Source of the DNA: an uncultured bacterium
Lineage (GTDB): Bacteria; Patescibacteriota; Patescibacteriia; CAIQCM01
DNA length: 14,324 nucleotides
Direction: 5' to 3'
Assembly (NCBI GenBank): GCA_903870305.1
Contig: CAIQCM010000132.1
Location: 1 to 14,324, forward strand
Shown here: piece by piece, positions 1-14,071 of the stretch
Layout: the number at the start of each line of letters is the position of its first letter
Numbering within the stretch: position 1 is the first letter of the stretch
Program-made: the position numbers and the translations under genes
Notes under the pieces: model-generated
The model's input: only the letters and a program-made list of their open reading frames with translations
Databases searched by the model: none
Told to the model about the DNA's origin: nothing

Positions 1-71
1 AATATCACCATGGTTGCTGTATTTATGAGATTGCCGCGTCGTTCGTTTCGACTCACTCCTCGCAATGACGA
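1..71. repeat. Partial copy of dispersed inverted-repeat element (copy 1)
   Basis: Bases 1-71 match 10453-10523 with a single visible mismatch (t versus c near base 26). The copy is cut by the window edge. The shared right end contains CTCGCAATGAC, the inverted complement of GTCATTGCGAG, which is the left end of the complete copy at about 10410. This is a small non-coding MITE-like element seen directly in the sequence. It lies just upstream of the glycosyltransferase gene. Confidence 0.85.
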
Positions 72-135
72 TAATTGATAAAGGCATTTCAAATACCCAC
101 TTGTTGCGCGTTATGAATAATAGTAAGGTAGTGCC

Positions 136-1266: not shown

Positions 1267-3756
1267 ATGCCAAGGAAGGGCGCGGCTATTCCAAAGCCGC
1301 GAGTTTCACGAGTTAGAAAGACATCAAAAACGGCGAAGCCGGCGGTTTTTTTCGTCGCCCCGACCACCCCCTTCATTCCCAAGATCAAAGCGCGCGATTC
1401 GTTCATGATAAAAACCGCGCCCAATGCCCCCTCGGCGCACCTCGTTGACTTGCGCGCGATCACCATGAGTAGGCCAAGCGGAACTTTTAAGAAGAAAACA
1501 AAAAGCAAAGAACAAGGCCGGGCGGGATCGACCGTTCTGCGCACCATTTCCGGCCGGCCGAACGCCGCTCGCTCGCTCGACCAACTTATGGTGGTCGCTT
1601 TTGGCCGATTCCTTTACTCGTGCGCGAAAGGGATCGTTGTCGGCGCCGGAAAACTTGTCGTTGCGCCGCTCACTTTGGGTTTGGCGTTCGCGGACAAGAT
1701 CGATCCAGATCTCCGCGCCAATATCGACGCGAAAAACCAAGAACCAAAAACCAATTTCCAAACAAGCGAACCAGCCACGAGCCACGCGCCACGAGCCACG
1801 CGCCAATTCAACATGCGACGCGCGCTGGTTTCTTTCGCGGGCACTTCTCTCGCCATTGTCCTGCCGCTTCAGGGCTTGAACGCCTGGCGCGCACTTGAGA
1901 CGGCCAAAGCGCAAGCCGAGAACGCGGGCGCCACCGCCGTCGGCGCCTTGAATGGCACCTCGTCGCTTGCGGAAGCGCAAACCGCCATCACGGCCGCGCG
2001 GCAATCCGTCGACAACCTCGGCCAAGTGGCCAATGCGCTCCTTGCCAACGCGCCGGGCGCCGGCGGCATGTTCCGTTCGGGCAAAGCGCTATTGGACGCG
2101 GGCGCGAACCTCGCCTCCGCCGCCACGTTGCTCACGCGTTCCCTCGATTTTATTAACGATCCTTCGCTCGACCTCACTTCCAAGCTCGAACGAGCGCAAA
2201 ACCTGGCGCAGCAAGCGCAACCGCTCTTGGCTTCGGCTCAGACCGAACTCGCCGGTGCCGACGCGCTTCCCTCAAGCGCGAACGTCGACCTTGGTTCGAT
2301 CAAAGAAAAAGTGGCGGCCATGAACGATCTTGTGAACGCTTTTATCAGGGTCGCGCCGGCGCTGCGCAATGTTTTGGGCGAAACCCAAGCGCGGCGTTAT
2401 CTGGTCATCTTCCAGAACAACGCCGAGCTGCGCCCCACCGGCGGCTTCATCGGCTCGTTCGCGCTCCTCGACGTTGACCGCGGCGCCGTGACCGCCGTCG
2501 AGGTTCCGGCCGGCGGTTCATACGACCTTCAAGGGTCGCTTAAGGCCAGCGTCCTTTCTCCCGACCCCCTGCGGCTCGTGCGGGCTAAGTGGGAATTCCA
2601 AGATGCCAATTGGTTCCCTGATTTTCCGACAAGCGCAAAAAAATTAACCTGGTTCTACAACCAAAGTTCGGGTCCTTCGGTTGACGGCGTGATCGCAATA
2701 AACGCGCCGGTCTTAGCCGAACTTCTTGATGCGGTCGGTCCCATCAACATGCCGGCTTACGGCACGGTTGCCACCAGCACAACGGTGCTCCAGACGGCCC
2801 AACAAATAGTCGAGAGCCCGGCCGCGCGCGCGGGCGGCAAGCCCAAACAATTCATCGCCGACCTCATGCCGCTGGTCCTTCAAAAGATCATGTCCTCAAG
2901 CGGCGATCAAGCAATCGGCGCTTTGTCGATCTTTATGAAAGCCCTGCGCGAAAAAGACATTCAAATGGCCTTTTCGAATAATGACGAAGAGCAGGCCTTT
3001 GACCGCCTTGGCTGGACCGGACAGCTTGATCCCGTCCCGGCGGCCTTTGATTCGTTCGAACTGGTACGCGCGAACATCGCCGGCGCCAAAACGGACGCGG
3101 TCATAAAGACCGATGTTAAACACGAGAGCGTTGTCGCCGAGGACGGCACCGTGACCGACCATGTCAGTGTGACGCTCACCCACACCGGAAACAAAGGCGA
3201 TCAATTCACCGGCGTGCGCAATGTCGAGTATTTGCGGATCTATGTTCCGGAGGGAAGCAAACTCGTGAAAGCGAGCGGCGACATCCGTCCGCCTGCGCCG
3301 TCATTCTTCGACACCCCGCCCGAAGGATGCGCGCCGGACCAAACGCTTGCGTCAATCGAAGGTGCGGTTCTTCACGATCCAAACAGCGGCACGGCTGTGA
3401 ATAACGAATTCAGCCGCACCGTTTTTGGCGTTTGGACGCAGACCGACCCGGGCATGAGCTCAACCGTTTCTTTCGACTACACCCTCCCGTTTGCCATTTC
3501 CCCCGTCGAGACGAGCTCGATCTCAGTCGCCCAACGACTTGGCATTACCGCAACCCCGGCCCCGTCGGCGCCGTTCGGACTTGTCATTAACAAGCAGTCC
3601 GGCGCCGCCAACACCGAAATAAATTCCACGCTCAAATTGCCGACCGGCTGGTATCCATCGTTCGCTTCGCCCGAAGGCATCGCCGGCACCGACGGTTGGT
3701 CGTACACGAGCTCACTTGATACGGACAAGGTCATCGGAGCGATTATCTCAAAATAA
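1267..3756 (+). CDS. DUF4012 domain membrane-anchored protein
   Basis: An 829-residue protein with a basic N-terminal tail of about 100 residues and a moderately hydrophobic stretch (about 108-142). A clear membrane segment follows at about 185-204 (ALVSFAGTSLAIVLPLQGL). An Ala/Gln-rich probable coiled coil spans 205-360. The DUF4012 core begins near residue 377 (RRYLVIFQNN) with the family hallmark NNAELRPTGGFIGS (384-397), then DANWFPDFP. The remainder is a long extracytoplasmic region. DUF4012 has no proven activity; it is recurrent beside glycosyltransferases in Patescibacteria and Actinobacteria, so a cell-envelope polysaccharide role is inferred. No Shine-Dalgarno precedes ATG 1267. The first 46 codons contain two hairpins, so ATG 1405 (MIKTAPNAPSAHLVDLR) is a possible true start. 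Residues 156-180 are encoded by two heptanucleotide arrays, giving KNQEPKTNFQ and ATSHAPRATR just before the membrane segment. Confidence 0.9.
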   Translation: MPRKGAAIPKPRVSRVRKTSKTAKPAVFFVAPTTPFIPKIKARDSFMIKTAPNAPSAHLVDLRAITMSRPSGTFKKKTKSKEQGRAGSTVLRTISGRPNAARSLDQLMVVAFGRFLYSCAKGIVVGAGKLVVAPLTLGLAFADKIDPDLRANIDAKNQEPKTNFQTSEPATSHAPRATRQFNMRRALVSFAGTSLAIVLPLQGLNAWRALETAKAQAENAGATAVGALNGTSSLAEAQTAITAARQSVDNLGQVANALLANAPGAGGMFRSGKALLDAGANLASAATLLTRSLDFINDPSLDLTSKLERAQNLAQQAQPLLASAQTELAGADALPSSANVDLGSIKEKVAAMNDLVNAFIRVAPALRNVLGETQARRYLVIFQNNAELRPTGGFIGSFALLDVDRGAVTAVEVPAGGSYDLQGSLKASVLSPDPLRLVRAKWEFQDANWFPDFPTSAKKLTWFYNQSSGPSVDGVIAINAPVLAELLDAVGPINMPAYGTVATSTTVLQTAQQIVESPAARAGGKPKQFIADLMPLVLQKIMSSSGDQAIGALSIFMKALREKDIQMAFSNNDEEQAFDRLGWTGQLDPVPAAFDSFELVRANIAGAKTDAVIKTDVKHESVVAEDGTVTDHVSVTLTHTGNKGDQFTGVRNVEYLRIYVPEGSKLVKASGDIRPPAPSFFDTPPEGCAPDQTLASIEGAVLHDPNSGTAVNNEFSRTVFGVWTQTDPGMSSTVSFDYTLPFAISPVETSSISVAQRLGITATPAPSAPFGLVINKQSGAANTEINSTLKLPTGWYPSFASPEGIAGTDGWSYTSSLDTDKVIGAIISK
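1735..1759 (+). repeat. AACCAAG heptanucleotide array inside DUF4012 gene
   Basis: Three 7-base units (AACCAAG 1735-1741, AACCAAA 1742-1748, AACCAAT 1749-1755) are followed by TTCC. They translate in frame as part of KNQEPKTNFQ. The same array, in the same orientation relative to the coding strand, occurs twice in the FemAB-type gene and once in ileS. Confidence 0.9.
1774..1805 (+). repeat. GCCACGA heptanucleotide array inside DUF4012 gene
   Basis: Units GCCACGA, GCCACGC, GCCACGA, GCCACGC and a partial GCCA run from 1774 to 1805, fifteen bases after the AACCAAG array. They encode ATSHAPRATR in frame. The insertion site is the linker just before the predicted membrane helix, where extra residues would be tolerated. 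Confidence 0.9.
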
Positions 3757-5775: not shown

Positions 5776-6737
5776 ATGCGACGGACAAGCGTGTAAACGC
5801 TATACCAAAACTTGTTCACGGGCAAATCAAGGGTGCCGGGGGCGGAAACATCGGCACCGCCAAAGCCGCGCTTAAAACGGGTGATCCCGGCCCAGCCGGA
5901 TTTGGGGTCGTCGGAAATTCCCCACAAGTCGTAATGTTTCATTCCTCGCTCTTTGGCCTGTTTCATGATCGCCCAATGCAGGGCATATGGCGCCATCACA
6001 TTGCGCATCTCGTTGGATGATGCGCCGTGCAAATAGGTTGCGGTACCCGCCGAAAATATCACGATCGCTGCCGCAAGGAGTTTGCCTTCATATTCAGCGC
6101 CATAAACCTCAACGTCGGGCATTTTAATTTGTTTTTCATAATACCCGCGCGGGTGCAAACGAAACCCGTCGCGCTTGGCCGTTTCTTCAAAGAGACGGAA
6201 TATGTTATCAAACTTCTTGGAAATTGGTTCTTGGTTCTTGGTTGTTATGACATTATGTTTTTCCGCAACGCGAATGTTATATCGCGTTTTTTGATGCATG
6301 GCCGCCAAAAGATCATCTTCATTCTTTGACAGATCGATAATACTTGTAGCTCTGGGATTAATGTCATGGGATTGCCGCACTCGCTTCGGCTCGCTCGCAA
6401 TGACAGCGGACTGGGGCTCAATGCGCAAAAACACCACCCTCGCCTCTTTGGCTTTATTTTTTAATTCTTCAATGACACCTTGGAAATTGGTTCTTGGTTC
6501 TTGGTTCTTTCCGTTAAAGATCGGTCCTTTCGGGCAAAACCAATATTTCTTCCCTAGCGGCAAAGACAACTCGACGACCTGCGCCAAGGACTTGTCGTCG
6601 GCGAACCGAAAAACTTTTCGTCCCAAAGAAATTTGAAATTCTCCCCACTCCCACGATTGCAAAAAATGACCCGACGGGACCGTGCGGGCTTCATGCAATT
6701 TCGTCCATTCGGTTTTGTCATTTATTTCGTGGAGCAT
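5766..6737 (-). CDS. FemAB-type peptidoglycan interpeptide bridge aminoacyltransferase
   Basis: A 323-residue member of the FemA/FemB/FemX (GNAT-fold) family, which adds amino acids from aminoacyl-tRNA to the peptidoglycan stem peptide at the inner membrane face. Family features are SGHFLQSWEWGEFQ (22-35), a basic MHQKTRYNIRVAEK (147-160), GKLLAAAIVIFSAGTATYLHGASS (218-241), APYALHWAIMKQAKERGMKHYDLWGI (249-274) and ITRFKRGFGG (285-294). Three segments look foreign and are encoded by repeats: KNQEPRTNFQ (77-86), VIASEPKRVRQSHD (112-125) and ITTKNQEPIS (164-173). All keep the frame. There is no clear Shine-Dalgarno at ATG 6737; a TAAAAT hexamer lies seven bases upstream. ruvA is 86 bases upstream on the same strand. 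The stop TAG lies within the tRNA-Arg gene. Its neighbour being a tRNA gene fits but does not prove an Arg-tRNA donor. Confidence 0.88.
   Translation of the reverse strand: MLHEINDKTEWTKLHEARTVPSGHFLQSWEWGEFQISLGRKVFRFADDKSLAQVVELSLPLGKKYWFCPKGPIFNGKNQEPRTNFQGVIEELKNKAKEARVVFLRIEPQSAVIASEPKRVRQSHDINPRATSIIDLSKNEDDLLAAMHQKTRYNIRVAEKHNVITTKNQEPISKKFDNIFRLFEETAKRDGFRLHPRGYYEKQIKMPDVEVYGAEYEGKLLAAAIVIFSAGTATYLHGASSNEMRNVMAPYALHWAIMKQAKERGMKHYDLWGISDDPKSGWAGITRFKRGFGGADVSAPGTLDLPVNKFWYSVYTLVRRMRP
6219..6248 (-). repeat. AACCAAG heptanucleotide array in FemAB-type gene (copy B)
   Basis: Three 7-base units (on the + strand TTGGTTC, TTGGTTC, TTGGTTG at 6224-6244) are flanked by GGAAA and TTAT. The whole 30-base block is identical to 11504-11533 inside ileS. 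Both encode ITTKNQEPIS in frame. Confidence 0.93.
6362..6405 (-). repeat. MITE-like GTCATTGCGAG element inside the FemAB-type gene
   Basis: A short inverted-repeat unit. The + strand starts GTCATGGGATTGCCGC and ends CTCGCTCGCAATGAC, so the ends are inverted relatives of each other. It shares GATTGCCGC and CGCAATGAC with the right half of the larger elements at 1-71 and 10408-10523. It is read in frame as VIASEPKRVRQSHD without a stop codon. Confidence 0.8.
6482..6511 (-). repeat. AACCAAG heptanucleotide array in FemAB-type gene (copy C)
   Basis: Three TTGGTTC units (+ strand 6487-6507) are preceded by GGAAA, the same left flank as the other copies. In the coding direction this copy is in a different codon phase from copy B, yet it still reads KNQEPRTNFQ because a 7-base unit gives the same cyclic peptide in all frames. 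Confidence 0.92.
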
Positions 6738-10407: not shown

Positions 10408-10523
10408 CCTGTCATTGCGAGGAGGCCGAAGCCGACGAAGCAATCCCCTCGAAATATCACCATGGTTGCTGTATTCATGAGATTGCCGCGTCGTTCGTTT
10501 CGACTCACTCCTCGCAATGACGA
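10408..10523. repeat. MITE-like GTCATTGCGAGGA element (complete copy)
   Basis: The element begins TGTCATTGCGAGGA and ends TCCTCGCAATGACG, inverted ends of about 13 bases. The inner GAAGCAATC and GATTGCCGC are also roughly inverted. Its right 71 bases are repeated at 1-71, and a trimmed relative lies inside the FemAB-type gene (6362-6405). There is no coding capacity. Confidence 0.88.
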
Positions 10524-10574
10524 GAGTTGATTGGGCCTTTTCAAAAACAGTGGCCGTAGCCGACCAAGCGAGAT

Positions 10575-10629
10575 TGGATTCACCCCTCGGGGTGCAAGCC
10601 CGCCTCCGCGGGAATGACGAGTCGTCATT
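10575..10629. repeat. Hairpin-rich repeat at the end of ileS
   Basis: CACCCC-TC-GGGGTG (10581-10594) and CCCGC/GCGGG (10599-10612) are followed by GGAATGAC and the palindrome AATGACGA-g-TCGTCATT (10613-10629), which reaches into the ileS stop codon. Elements with GTCATTCCCGCG ends are common dispersed bacterial repeats; here one abuts the gene end. Confidence 0.65.
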
Positions 10630-13600
10630 ATATTTTCTTCACGCCGATCCAAAGTTTTTTCCCATCAATATCCAATTCGCGCGAGACATCAACTTCGCCG
10701 CGTTCCATGACTACCTCGTCGGCGCGGGCGGAGGCGGCCAAATGTTCTTTTTCGGTCGTTAAGATTGATTTGAATTCAATGTCATCAATATCAAACATTA
10801 GTGTGATCCGGTCGGCGGGAGTGAGCTTGGCTTCTTTTCTGAGGTCGTTTATTTGGCGCATAATTTCGCGCATCATTCCTTCGCGCTTAAGTTCGGCGGT
10901 TATCTCGGTGCGCAGCGCGACAGTCAACCCATTCGCGCTCTTGATTATCCAACCGCCGCGCTCATCAATGCGGTCAATCGATCTCACAAGCTTGACGTTC
11001 AATTCTTCGGCGGCAAGCGGCAGAAGTTCGTCAATATTTTTTAGCGCAGCTTTTTCTATTTCGACCTCGGAAAGCGGCTGACGCAATTTAACTTCGGCCT
11101 CGTCGCGCAGGGCGTGCCCCAGCTCGACGATCTTTCGAATCGTTGCCATCTCGGCGATAAGATCATCGTCGATCTCCTTGTCGTTGAACTTCGGCCAATC
11201 AACAAGATGCACCGACTCCCCTTCACCGGCCAGCTCGGCATACATCGCCTCGGCGACGAACGGCGTCATTGGCGCGAGCAGTTTGGTCACGGTCATGAGC
11301 GCTTCGTAGAGCGGTTCGACCGAAGCGCCGGCGCGGAAGCGGTCGCGCGAGCGGCGCACATACCAAGTGGAAAGTTCATTCACAAACTCCATGACCGCGC
11401 GTCCGGCATCGGTCGGGCGGTAGGCGTCGAGATTTTCGGTAACGTTCTTAACAAGCTGATTCAATCGCGATCGCAACCACTTATCAAGAATATGTTCTGG
11501 ACTGGAAATTGGTTCTTGGTTCTTGGTTGTTATTTGAGACAGTTTCCAAAATTCCATGGTGTTCCAAAGAATGAGGAACACTTTCTTAACAATGCCGTCG
11601 ACGTCATGCTCGTCAAAGCGCTTGTAGTCGCCGGGCTGGTTAACCGTGAACAGATAAAAGCGCACCGCATCGGCACCGAACTTTTCAAACATCTTCCACG
11701 GATCGACAATGTTGCCCTTGGACTTGGACATCTTAAAGCCCTTAGCGTCCAAAATATGGTTCATCGAGATCACATTTTTGTACGGCGGGCGCTTGTAGCC
11801 CAGCAAGGTGTTGACCGCAAGAAGCGTATAGAACCAACCGCGCGTCTGGTCGATGGCTTCGGAAATAAAATCCGCCGGGAATGATAACCCCTTATCGATG
11901 CGCTCTTTGTTTTCGAAAGGATAATGCCACTGCGCGAACGGCATACAGCCCGAATCAAACCACACGTCCATAACATCCTTAACGCGTCGCATTTCGCCTT
12001 TGCATTCGTCGCATTTAATAACGACCTCGTCGATATACGGACGATGCGGATCAAGCTCGCCGCCATCGTTAAATGGCCAGTTAGGCAAGAATACTTCAAC
12101 GGGCTGCGCAAATACGGGATAGCGCCTGTCTTTAAGCTCATTGTCCGGCACGCGACTAAGCGTGCAATCCAAAACATAGAGCGGGTCGCCGTGGCTTACC
12201 ACGAGCACTGTTTCGCCCGCGTGCTTCGCGTTTATCTCGCGGACGAAATCCATCATCCGCTTTCTCAGCTGCGAGAAATTTTCTCCGCCCTCCGGCGCGT
12301 GGGTCCAGCGTTCGGCCGGCGACGGAAAGGCCTTGTAAAATTCATTCGGGCTTTTGCCGTTCATCTCCCCAAACTCGCTTTCTTTTAACCGTTCGTCGGT
12401 TGCAACCGGCAACCCCAAAGCCGCGGCAACGATGCCGGCCGTTTCTTGAGTGCGCACATAGGGCGAGCTATAGATGGCGACGATCTTTTCTTTGCCAAGT
12501 TTTTTTGCCGTGGCCTCGGCCATCTCTTTGCCTTTTTCGGTCAAATGAACTTTGTGACCCTCCGGCCCTGAGGAGATCATTTCGGAAACATTGCTTTCGG
12601 CCTCGCCGTGGCGCATAAGCAGAAGCCGCGCCGGCTTGGCTAAACGCTTTTCTTCGAGGTCGGAAAACGATCCCACCACGGTCTTGTGGCCTTTGTCGCA
12701 TTTCCAAACAGGGAGCGGGGTCGCCCAAAAACGTTCGCGCGAAATGGCCCAGTCCTTGTTGCCTTTAAGCCACTCGCCAAAGCGCCCTTCCTTAAGGTGT
12801 GCCGGCTCCCAATTTATTTCTTCATTGGCTTTGATCATCGTCTCGGCCGTTTCGGATGTTTTAAAAAACCACGACGGCTTGGCGTAATAGATAAGCGGGC
12901 TCTTGCAGCGCCAGCAAAACGGGTAGGTGTGGCGGATGGTTTCTTTCTTGTAAAGTTTTCCGCTCGCGGCAAGGTCTTCAATAATAAGCGGATCGGCTTT
13001 TTTAACAAAGAGGCCCGCCCACGGCTTAACTTCGTCCATGAATTCGCCGGCCGTGTTCACCAAATGCTGCTGCGGCAGTTTGTTGGCAACGCCCAAATTA
13101 AAGTCGTCCACCCCGTACATGGGCGCAATGTGCACAATTCCCGTTCCGTCCTCGGTCGAAACAAAATCCGCCGCCAGAACATGATGCGCCGTCCCGGAAT
13201 ACTTAACAAAGGAATACGGCGCTTCGTATTCAACCCCAACCAGCTCCTTGCCCGAAAGTTCACGGAGCACTTTGTATTCGCCGTCGATGGCCGTAAGCCG
13301 CGCGGTCGCGAGAATAAGATGTTCGCCGCCCGCAAGTTCGATCTCGGAGTATTTGACGTCCTCGCCCACGGCAAGCGCCACATTCGCGGGCAAGGTCCAC
13401 GGCGTGGTCGTCCAAACCAAGAAGCTCGCGCCGCCCAAAAGATCATCCTTTATCTTAAAGCGAACAAAAACCGAAACATCGTCGACGTCTTCGTAACCTT
13501 GAGCCAGTTCATGCGAAGCCAGCGTCGTCCCGCAGCGCGGACAATGCGGCACCACCTTGTAGCCCTCATAAAGCAATTTGCGTCCGTCGATCTCCTTTAC

Positions 13601-14071
13601 TATCCACCAAAGCGATTCAATATAGTTCGGCTCGTAGGTAATGTAGGGGTGCTCCAAGTCGACCCAGTAGCCGGAACGTTTGGTGAATTTGGTCCAAAGA
13701 TCTTTGTACTCCCAAACCGATTCGCGGCACTTGCGGTTGTAGGCGGCCACCCCGTACTCCTCAACCTCGCGCTTCGACTTAAACCCGAGCTTCTTTTCAA
13801 CTTCAATTTCAACCGGCAATCCATGCGTGTCCCAGCCGGCCTTGCGCTCGACGTGGAATCCTTGCATCGTCTTATAGCGCAAGATAACGTCCTTAAAATA
13901 ACGGGCGATGAGGTGATGGATCCCCGGCTTACCGTTAGCCGTCGGCGGTCCTTCAAAAAAGATGAAATTGCCCTCAGGCGAGGGCTTTTGAAGCGATTTG
14001 TTAAAAATATCCTTCTCATCCCACTCCTTCAGTATTTTCTCCTCAAGTTCGGGAAATTTGGGTACTGGCAT
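10628..14071 (-). CDS. ileS: Isoleucyl-tRNA synthetase, type 2, with an inserted histidine-phosphatase domain
   Basis: A class I synthetase that charges tRNA-Ile. Residues 36-60 hold the first signature as ANGKPGIHH, i.e. GIHH (50-53) instead of HIGH. KAGWDTHGLPVE spans 78-89. The CP1 editing domain includes TTTPWTLPAN (221-230) and HIAPMYGVDDF (314-324). KMSKS is at 780-784. The anticodon-binding domain and a type 2 C-terminal region (LKREGMMREIMRQINDLRKEAKL) follow. Cys pairs occur at 177/180, 386/389 and 687/690. Between WKC458DKGH and C687xxC690 sits a complete histidine-phosphatase domain (about 481-645), which explains the length of 1147. ITTKNQEPIS (847-856) is a heptanucleotide-array insertion. 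ATG 14071 is the first start after an in-frame TGA and has no close Shine-Dalgarno. A terminator lies at 10335-10364. Confidence 0.96.
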   Translation of the reverse strand: MPVPKFPELEEKILKEWDEKDIFNKSLQKPSPEGNFIFFEGPPTANGKPGIHHLIARYFKDVILRYKTMQGFHVERKAGWDTHGLPVEIEVEKKLGFKSKREVEEYGVAAYNRKCRESVWEYKDLWTKFTKRSGYWVDLEHPYITYEPNYIESLWWIVKEIDGRKLLYEGYKVVPHCPRCGTTLASHELAQGYEDVDDVSVFVRFKIKDDLLGGASFLVWTTTPWTLPANVALAVGEDVKYSEIELAGGEHLILATARLTAIDGEYKVLRELSGKELVGVEYEAPYSFVKYSGTAHHVLAADFVSTEDGTGIVHIAPMYGVDDFNLGVANKLPQQHLVNTAGEFMDEVKPWAGLFVKKADPLIIEDLAASGKLYKKETIRHTYPFCWRCKSPLIYYAKPSWFFKTSETAETMIKANEEINWEPAHLKEGRFGEWLKGNKDWAISRERFWATPLPVWKCDKGHKTVVGSFSDLEEKRLAKPARLLLMRHGEAESNVSEMISSGPEGHKVHLTEKGKEMAEATAKKLGKEKIVAIYSSPYVRTQETAGIVAAALGLPVATDERLKESEFGEMNGKSPNEFYKAFPSPAERWTHAPEGGENFSQLRKRMMDFVREINAKHAGETVLVVSHGDPLYVLDCTLSRVPDNELKDRRYPVFAQPVEVFLPNWPFNDGGELDPHRPYIDEVVIKCDECKGEMRRVKDVMDVWFDSGCMPFAQWHYPFENKERIDKGLSFPADFISEAIDQTRGWFYTLLAVNTLLGYKRPPYKNVISMNHILDAKGFKMSKSKGNIVDPWKMFEKFGADAVRFYLFTVNQPGDYKRFDEHDVDGIVKKVFLILWNTMEFWKLSQITTKNQEPISSPEHILDKWLRSRLNQLVKNVTENLDAYRPTDAGRAVMEFVNELSTWYVRRSRDRFRAGASVEPLYEALMTVTKLLAPMTPFVAEAMYAELAGEGESVHLVDWPKFNDKEIDDDLIAEMATIRKIVELGHALRDEAEVKLRQPLSEVEIEKAALKNIDELLPLAAEELNVKLVRSIDRIDERGGWIIKSANGLTVALRTEITAELKREGMMREIMRQINDLRKEAKLTPADRITLMFDIDDIEFKSILTTEKEHLAASARADEVVMERGEVDVSRELDIDGKKLWIGVKKI
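11504..11533 (-). repeat. AACCAAG heptanucleotide array inside ileS (copy D)
   Basis: The 30-base block is identical to 6219-6248 in the FemAB-type gene. It lies in the linker between the catalytic core and the anticodon-binding domain and is translated in frame as ITTKNQEPIS. Confidence 0.93.

What the first reader, a model, noticed from the sequence alone, without database searches (positions are those of the whole stretch)
12137..12631. Complete histidine-phosphatase domain inserted in the zinc-knuckle region of IleRS
Residues about 481-645 of the synthetase read as an intact phosphoglycerate-mutase-like histidine phosphatase. R487-H488-G489-E490 carries the nucleophile, SSPYVRTQET carries R540, KESEFGEMNG carries a candidate acid at E564 or E566, and VVSHGD carries H627. 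The frame is continuous on both sides. The flanking synthetase sequence (WKCDKGH before, KCDEC after) looks like two halves of one metal knuckle, so the domain would project from its tip. An active phosphatase inside an aminoacyl-tRNA synthetase suggests a coupled activity, such as removal of a nucleotide or signalling phosphate, or control of charging. The family architecture is established knowledge; the coupling is inference.
Basis: partly seen in the sequence, partly recalled or inferred. Interest (0 to 1): 0.78.

Follow-up and report, generated by a model that had tools for sequence, protein, structure and literature searches.

The report
Phosphatase built into isoleucyl-tRNA synthetase
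In a good many small-genome Patescibacteria the enzyme that loads isoleucine onto tRNA carries an apparently intact phosphatase inside it, a pairing that was gained or lost repeatedly, which suggests that the two activities belong together, although what the phosphatase acts on is unknown.

Summary
Window 10628-14071 (-) encodes one continuous 1147-aa IleRS (TIGR00392, 869.8 bits). It holds an intact His_Phos_1 domain (PF00300, 143.6 bits, aa 483-648) in the hairpin between the two halves of the second zinc knuckle; the insert is aa 481 to about 671. It is not an assembly artefact: 410 proteins match this region. R487, H488, R540 and H627 are invariant in the best 120; E564 is the acid (117 E, 3 D), E566 is not. 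In 143 genomes of the phylum, 24 of 140 IleRSs carry it (lower bound).

Further: IleRS can hold one, two or three copies. ValRS also holds copies, at two different places. Four genomes keep a related phosphatase gene close to an IleRS without the insert (three directly upstream). In one family one phosphatase lineage sits on two IleRS backbones. In an HP-only search all 29 listed matches in frames of 850 aa or more were in IleRS or ValRS (list cut). This supports a selected link to the synthetase.

Substrate and coupling remain inferred. The domain evolves 4-5 times faster than the synthetase and meets none of the specific HP families listed. Seven paper searches found nothing on it.

The parts
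10628..14071 (-). isoleucyl-tRNA synthetase, 1147 aa, with inserted histidine phosphatase domain
12059..12631 (-). whole insert (aa 481 to about 671), in the hairpin between knuckle halves
   Evidence: 1ile and P. megaterium IleRS2 blocks stop before and resume after it
12128..12625 (-). His_Phos_1 domain match, aa 483-648
   Evidence: PF00300 E 7.7e-42, 143.6 bits
12608..12613 (-). R487-H488, phosphate-binding Arg and nucleophile His (roles from the family, recalled)
   Evidence: 120 of 120 proteins; 67 of 67 first IleRS inserts
12452..12454 (-). R540, second active-site Arg
   Evidence: 120 of 120; 67 of 67
12380..12382 (-). E564, candidate general acid
   Evidence: 117 E and 3 D of 120; E566 is E in 9 of 120
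12191..12193 (-). H627, second active-site His
   Evidence: 120 of 120; 67 of 67
12686..12700 (-). first half of second zinc knuckle (C458...H462)
   Evidence: alignment with 1ile; C458 in 113 of 120
12002..12013 (-). second half of second zinc knuckle (C687..C690)
   Evidence: alignment with 1ile; C687 in 114 and C690 in 113 of 120
13913..13924 (-). class I signature motif in swapped form, G50-I-H-H53
   Evidence: swapped GXHH form described in PMC10485003 (passages)
11720..11734 (-). KMSKS motif, aa 780-784

Best explanation
Shown by sequence and model: the protein is a type-2-like IleRS carrying a complete, catalytically equipped histidine phosphatase of the PhoE/PspA fold type in the hairpin of its second zinc knuckle. 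The active-site set is kept in relatives that share only 27-41% of the domain. Inferred from evolution: the physical or operon link of this phosphatase to IleRS (and ValRS) is itself selected, because it was gained or lost many times, at more than one place, and because a phosphatase gene of the same group lies close to an IleRS without the insert in four genomes, directly upstream in three. Inferred mechanism: the domain is an active phosphomonoesterase that forms a phospho-histidine on H488 and works beside the synthetase on a small phosphorylated compound linked to charging, either a product such as AMP or an inhibitory or damaged phospho-compound, without taking part in the aminoacylation chemistry itself.
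For: Domain and residues. Site. Spread: 24 of 140 IleRSs in 143 genomes at least 90% complete. Specificity: in an HP-only search 29 of 29 listed matches in frames of 850 aa or more were IleRS or ValRS (list cut; identities). Independent sites and copies: two or three HPs in IleRS (L101, L102, L120, L193), ValRS at the same hairpin (L109, L110) and at another loop (L103, L104). Gene neighbours: ArgRS-HP-IleRS in L115 and L116, ArgRS-other-HP-IleRS in L050 with a 4-nt HP/IleRS overlap, looser in L117. Separate-gene HPs nest among inserted ones; an inserts-only clade is rejected, AU p 0.0045. In family f61 four HPs form one clade (98/86) on two IleRS backbones; one backbone clade is rejected, AU p 2.9e-67.
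Against: No substrate, activity or distance between active sites could be measured; the tools gave no coordinates. The domain changes fast: 51% identity against 88% and 84% for the synthetase parts within one genus, dN 0.43 against 0.08 and 0.10 (dS saturated), which fits a loosely attached module. No residue signature marks IleRS-linked HPs clearly from free ones. 116 of 140 IleRSs show no HP (3 of them fragments). G174 keeps a close free relative on another contig than its IleRS. A few copies lack the usual acid or last His (L108 S for His; P0126 first copy A, L111 and L112 S, one P for the acid). HP trees are poorly resolved: 24 of 148 inner branches starred, and one clade of all main inserts plus separate genes has only 71/87 support. 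The groups for the AU tests were named after the trees were seen. The four neighbour cases were found by HP matches to the query, so they give no frequency.
Confidence: 0.5

Rival explanations
1. Bolt-on enzyme: a general small-molecule phosphatase is carried by IleRS only because the exposed knuckle loop tolerates insertions and the synthetase is always expressed. It works for metabolism at large, with no link to charging.
For: Fast divergence with sharp borders. Other small enzymes ride on some of the same synthetases: GNAT (L105), NUDIX and serine hydrolase (L112), HAD and serine hydrolase (L106). Nearest solved relatives are metabolic phosphatases.
Against: If the loop took anything, other inserts without HP should be common, but IleRSs with no listed HP are 931-1099 aa, with one exception of 1154 aa that carries repeat-like peptides (three fragments under 700 aa set aside). 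The separate genes beside IleRS do not need the loop.
Confidence: 0.3
2. Regulatory phosphatase: the domain removes phosphate from a protein or from RNA ends (the synthetase itself, a neighbour, or tRNA) and so controls charging.
For: Position in the knuckle hairpin between the two halves of the synthetase's catalytic part; the superfamily includes protein phosphatases (recalled).
Against: The nearest structures are small-molecule phosphatases, and fast divergence argues against a tight protein interface. I did not search for a partner kinase or RNA.
Confidence: 0.15
3. Structural filler or decaying domain without activity.
For: A few inserted copies have lost the acid or a His.
Against: Four active-site residues 120 of 120 and 67 of 67 at low overall identity; dN/dS about 0.3 in the domain, with dS saturated.
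Confidence: 0.03
4. Assembly or binning artefact.
For: None found.
Against: Continuous frame; same architecture in a same-genus genome and in 36 of the 80 loci fetched from public species genomes, as a long IleRS frame with the domain.
Confidence: 0.01

Closest known systems
Type 2 isoleucyl-tRNA synthetase (P. megaterium IleRS2, 8c8u; T. thermophilus IleRS, 1ile)
   Different: About 190 residues of phosphatase inserted in the second knuckle hairpin; swapped GIHH motif instead of HXGH
PhoE / PspA-type histidine phosphatases (1h2e, 4ij5)
   Different: Embedded in a synthetase; scores far below the curated cut-offs of the HP subfamilies shown (25 of 31 rows shown)
NCBIfam ileS_w_GNAT (IleRS with an acetyltransferase domain)
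   Same: An enzyme domain carried by IleRS
   Different: Different domain; the window protein scores 338 against a cut-off of 1999

Membership tests
Histidine phosphatase superfamily, branch 1 (PF00300) | Score over curated cut-off along most of the profile | tested here: met
   143.6 bits against 21.7, profile 1-168 of 194
Histidine phosphatase superfamily, branch 1 (PF00300) | Active-site set RH..R..E..H | tested here: met
   R487 H488 R540 E564 H627; 120 of 120 for R, H, R, H
Histidine phosphatase superfamily, branch 1 (PF00300) | Fold | tested here: met
Histidine phosphatase superfamily, branch 1 (PF00300) | Phosphatase activity through phospho-His | not testable with these tools
   needs purified protein
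Isoleucyl-tRNA synthetase (TIGR00392) | Equivalog score | tested here: met
   869.8 bits against 621.4
Isoleucyl-tRNA synthetase (TIGR00392) | Charges tRNA-Ile | not testable with these tools
   one IleRS row in its genome at the threshold (genome 90.5% complete), so presumed active
GXHH mupirocin hyper-resistant IleRS2 class | Swapped GXHH motif | tested here: met
   G50-I-H-H53; motif as described in passages of PMC10485003
GXHH mupirocin hyper-resistant IleRS2 class | Raised inhibition constant for mupirocin | not testable with these tools
   no assay
PspA phosphoserine phosphatase (NF045917) | Equivalog cut-off | tested here: not met
   86.5 against 350
Alpha-ribazole phosphatase CobC (TIGR03162) | Equivalog cut-off | tested here: not met
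   91.1 against 162.9
IleRS with GNAT domain (NF040702) | Family cut-off and acetyltransferase domain | tested here: not met
   338.4 against 1999; no GNAT domain among the Pfam matches

The most novel reading that the evidence does not exclude
On-board protection of the charging enzyme: Patescibacteria arm IleRS, less often ValRS, with one to three phosphatase modules (and sometimes GNAT, NUDIX, HAD or serine hydrolase modules) that destroy phosphorylated, nucleotide-like inhibitors or dead-end products at the synthetase itself. This would explain the fast divergence around a fixed active site, the extra copies, the swapping between backbones, and perhaps the swapped GIHH motif in the same enzyme.
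Probability: 0.12. Interest if true: 0.85.

Novelty: new variant of a known kind. Interest (0 to 1): 0.62.

Why it matters
Synthetases with appended domains are known, but a catalytic phosphatase that is found in IleRS and ValRS repeatedly, at two kinds of place, in up to three copies in IleRS, and also beside IleRS as a separate gene, points to an unrecognised chemical need at isoleucine and valine charging in a large group of mostly uncultured bacteria. It can be tested directly with one recombinant protein and one point mutant.

Tried and rejected
Assembly artefact: rejected. General insertion-tolerant loop as the whole explanation: weakened by the length survey. The exception G022 (1154 aa) was read: its extra length is repeat-like peptide, with no HP match. 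Substrate signature: looked for columns that separate IleRS-linked from free HPs; none decisive. PspA, CobC and other HP subfamilies as the identity: below cut-offs. E566 as acid: rejected. Distance from the HP active site to the charging site: not computed, since no coordinates are laid in the Python box. Paper searches: seven on the architecture, listings only; 0, 0, 0, 0, 1, 4 and 6 papers were listed and none, by title and start of abstract, treats it. One more search was on mupirocin resistance. Read: passages of PMC10485003 and of PMC9437257 (no mention of phosphatase), nothing else. Counts are lower bounds because their match lists are cut. Rows dropped: for the IleRS tree duplicate loci, 15 Actinomycetota/Chloroflexota loci set aside to thin the set, and loci that failed the two-piece IleRS test (such as L111, L112 and L117); HP rows under 120 aligned residues, L041, L047, L052 and duplicate loci were left out. 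L117 and L122 were not in the smaller HP tree.

Full report
Observation. The window's minus strand encodes an IleRS of 1147 aa at 10628-14071. The family model ileS scores 869.8 bits against a cut-off of 621.4, and His_Phos_1 matches aa 483-648 at E 7.7e-42.

Catalytic state. In the best 120 of 410 proteins that match this region, R487, H488, R540 and H627 are invariant; E564 is E in 117 and D in 3, while E566 is E in only 9. The 120 were chosen by similarity. In a broader set of 67 first IleRS inserts the same four residues are 67 of 67 and the acid is 66 E and 1 D (rows with at least 120 aligned residues). In 27 ValRS inserts they are 27, 27, 27 and 26. Exceptions: P0126 first copy has A at the acid, L108 (ValRS) has S at the last His, L111 and L112 have S at the acid position, and one long row has P.

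Spread. In 143 evenly drawn genomes of the window's phylum at least 90% complete, 140 have an IleRS row, and 24 of these carry the domain. The tool does not name the phylum; the named relatives make it Patescibacteria. Median frame length is 1191.5 aa with and 993.5 aa without a listed HP. Frames without one are 931-1099 aa, except one of 1154 aa and three fragments below 700 aa whose state is unknown. In the larger draw of 379 genomes the cut list shows 59 genomes with IleRS-HP; 34 of these were checked by Pfam or a domain search on fetched DNA, and the rest are judged by flank match and frame length. Of 80 loci fetched from named species genomes, 36 have a long IleRS frame with the domain. 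Their names are Patescibacteria groups or unnamed bacteria, apart from one record labelled Spirochaetia (L030). In one search one name is Eisenbacteria (P0045). Both may be mis-binned.

Specificity. In a search with PF00300 alone in the same 143 genomes, 105 have a match at E 1e-15 or better. The list, which is cut, holds 29 matches in frames of 850 aa or more, from 25 genomes, and all 29 lie in IleRS or ValRS (identities). ValRS carries a listed HP in 3 of 123 ValRS rows (G044, G003, G046). A protein search from a ValRS insert found 69 proteins, many of them IleRS by their C-terminal domain. The shorter fusions I read are of other kinds: dehydrogenase-mutase (L205, L206), mutase-pyruvate kinase (L207) (names from reading the sequences, no family search was run) and VTT-HP (L113).

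Copies and places. L101, L120 and L193 have two HPs and L102 has three in one IleRS. The ValRS of G046 has two. P0123, a protein found with the ValRS insert, has four, the last partial (its class was not checked beyond Pfam). In ValRS L109 and L110 the domain is in the matching hairpin; in L103 and L104 it is in a later loop, after the WFSSG..W stretch. Some of these proteins carry further enzyme domains: GNAT in L105, NUDIX and serine hydrolase in L112, HAD and serine hydrolase in L106.

Neighbour genes. In L115 the order is ArgRS, HP, IleRS, with 1 nt and 14 nt between them. In L116 it is the same, with 4 nt between HP and IleRS. The IleRSs are 966 and 965 aa and lack the insert. In L050 it is ArgRS, another gene, HP, IleRS (935 aa, no insert), and HP and IleRS overlap by 4 nt. 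In L117 ArgRS, HP and IleRS lie in the same order, but small genes stand between, and that IleRS (1064-aa frame) has no insert. Of 40 other free HP loci fetched with up to about 4 kb on each side, none had an IleRS or ArgRS in the stretch; one had a ValRS about 2.6 kb away (L148). Three of the four genomes were fetched because their free HPs stood near the top (203, 173 and 155.5 bits), the fourth came, so this is not a frequency.

History. On a tree of 113 IleRS cores (69 with and 44 without HP) built without the insert columns, presence of HP needs at least 15 changes, 10 of them forced by well-supported branches; shuffled labels need 35 (quick method; the rows without HP were sampled by choice). 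In the HP tree 60 of 67 first IleRS inserts fall in one set with the four separate genes (support 90), while three of four second copies and 21 of 27 ValRS inserts lie apart. That tree is poorly resolved (24 of 148 inner branches starred). In a smaller, careful tree a clade of main inserts without the separate genes L050, L115 and L116 is rejected (AU p 0.0045), and the main inserts plus these genes form one side with weak support (71/87). In family f61 four HPs form one clade (98/86), but their IleRS cores belong to two far clades; holding the cores together is rejected (AU p 2.9e-67), and placing the HP of L184 with that of its core neighbour L187 is rejected at p 0.014. So the phosphatase was kept, or moved across, while the synthetase beneath it changed. 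These groups were chosen after seeing the trees.

Pace. Between the window and L121 of the same genus, the domain is 51% identical against 88% and 84% for the parts before and after it; dN is 0.43 against 0.08 and 0.10, with dS 1.1-1.5 and so saturated. The five active-site codons are unchanged. This pattern allows either fast divergence or exchange of the module.

Reading. That the domain is a phosphatase by ancestry and has kept its active site is well supported. That its link to IleRS is selected rests on four lines: preference for IleRS and ValRS, repeated gain or loss, more than one insertion place, and separate genes beside IleRS. What it acts on, and whether it changes charging, is open. 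My best guess is a small phosphorylated compound at the synthetase, at even odds. The bolt-on rival is the strongest alternative.

Literature. Paper searches on the architecture gave no paper about it. The library holds open-licence papers only, so this is not proof of absence. The swapped GXHH motif and its link with mupirocin hyper-resistance come from passages of PMC10485003; here only the motif is seen.

Gene gaps in L115 and L116 were recounted with stop codons, and IleRS or ValRS identity and HP state of L111, L112, L202, L203 and L204 were tested.

Noticed in passing
window 13913-13924: The class I signature motif is swapped (GIHH). PMC10485003 links GXHH in IleRS2 with mupirocin hyper-resistance. 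In the 120 relatives the first motif position is G or A in 66 and H in 47, with 7 gaps.
   Followed up: partly
window 1732-1761, 6217-6248, 6480-6514, 11503-11533: A repeat built of AAGAACC units lies inside three reading frames (DUF4012 protein, FemAB protein, IleRS near aa 847-857) and adds peptides such as KNQEPIS. The 14-mer occurs 54 times in the genome (29 + 25, overlaps counted); the reversed control (35) is a phase shift of the same units, so it is no real control.
   Followed up: partly
window 1-96 and 10453-10548: A 96-nt direct repeat, 91% identical, perhaps part of a dispersed element.
   Followed up: no
L105, L106, L112: Other enzyme domains ride on HP-bearing synthetases: GNAT in an IleRS, HAD and serine hydrolase in a ValRS, NUDIX and serine hydrolase in an IleRS.
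   Followed up: partly
L202 1015-4467: An IleRS of 1150 aa from G022 with repeat-like peptides at several places, one of them in the same knuckle hairpin.
   Followed up: partly
L030: A contig labelled Spirochaetia carries an IleRS with the insert that groups with Patescibacteria rows; probably mis-binned.
   Followed up: no
L115 3545-6445: The IleRS beside the separate HP gene in G348 has an altered KMSKS region (EMHKSKGN) and groups with an archaeal row in the core tree.
   Followed up: no
L205, L206, L207, L113: Other phosphatase or mutase fusions in the phylum: dehydrogenase-mutase, mutase-pyruvate kinase (named from reading the sequences) and VTT-HP.
   Followed up: no
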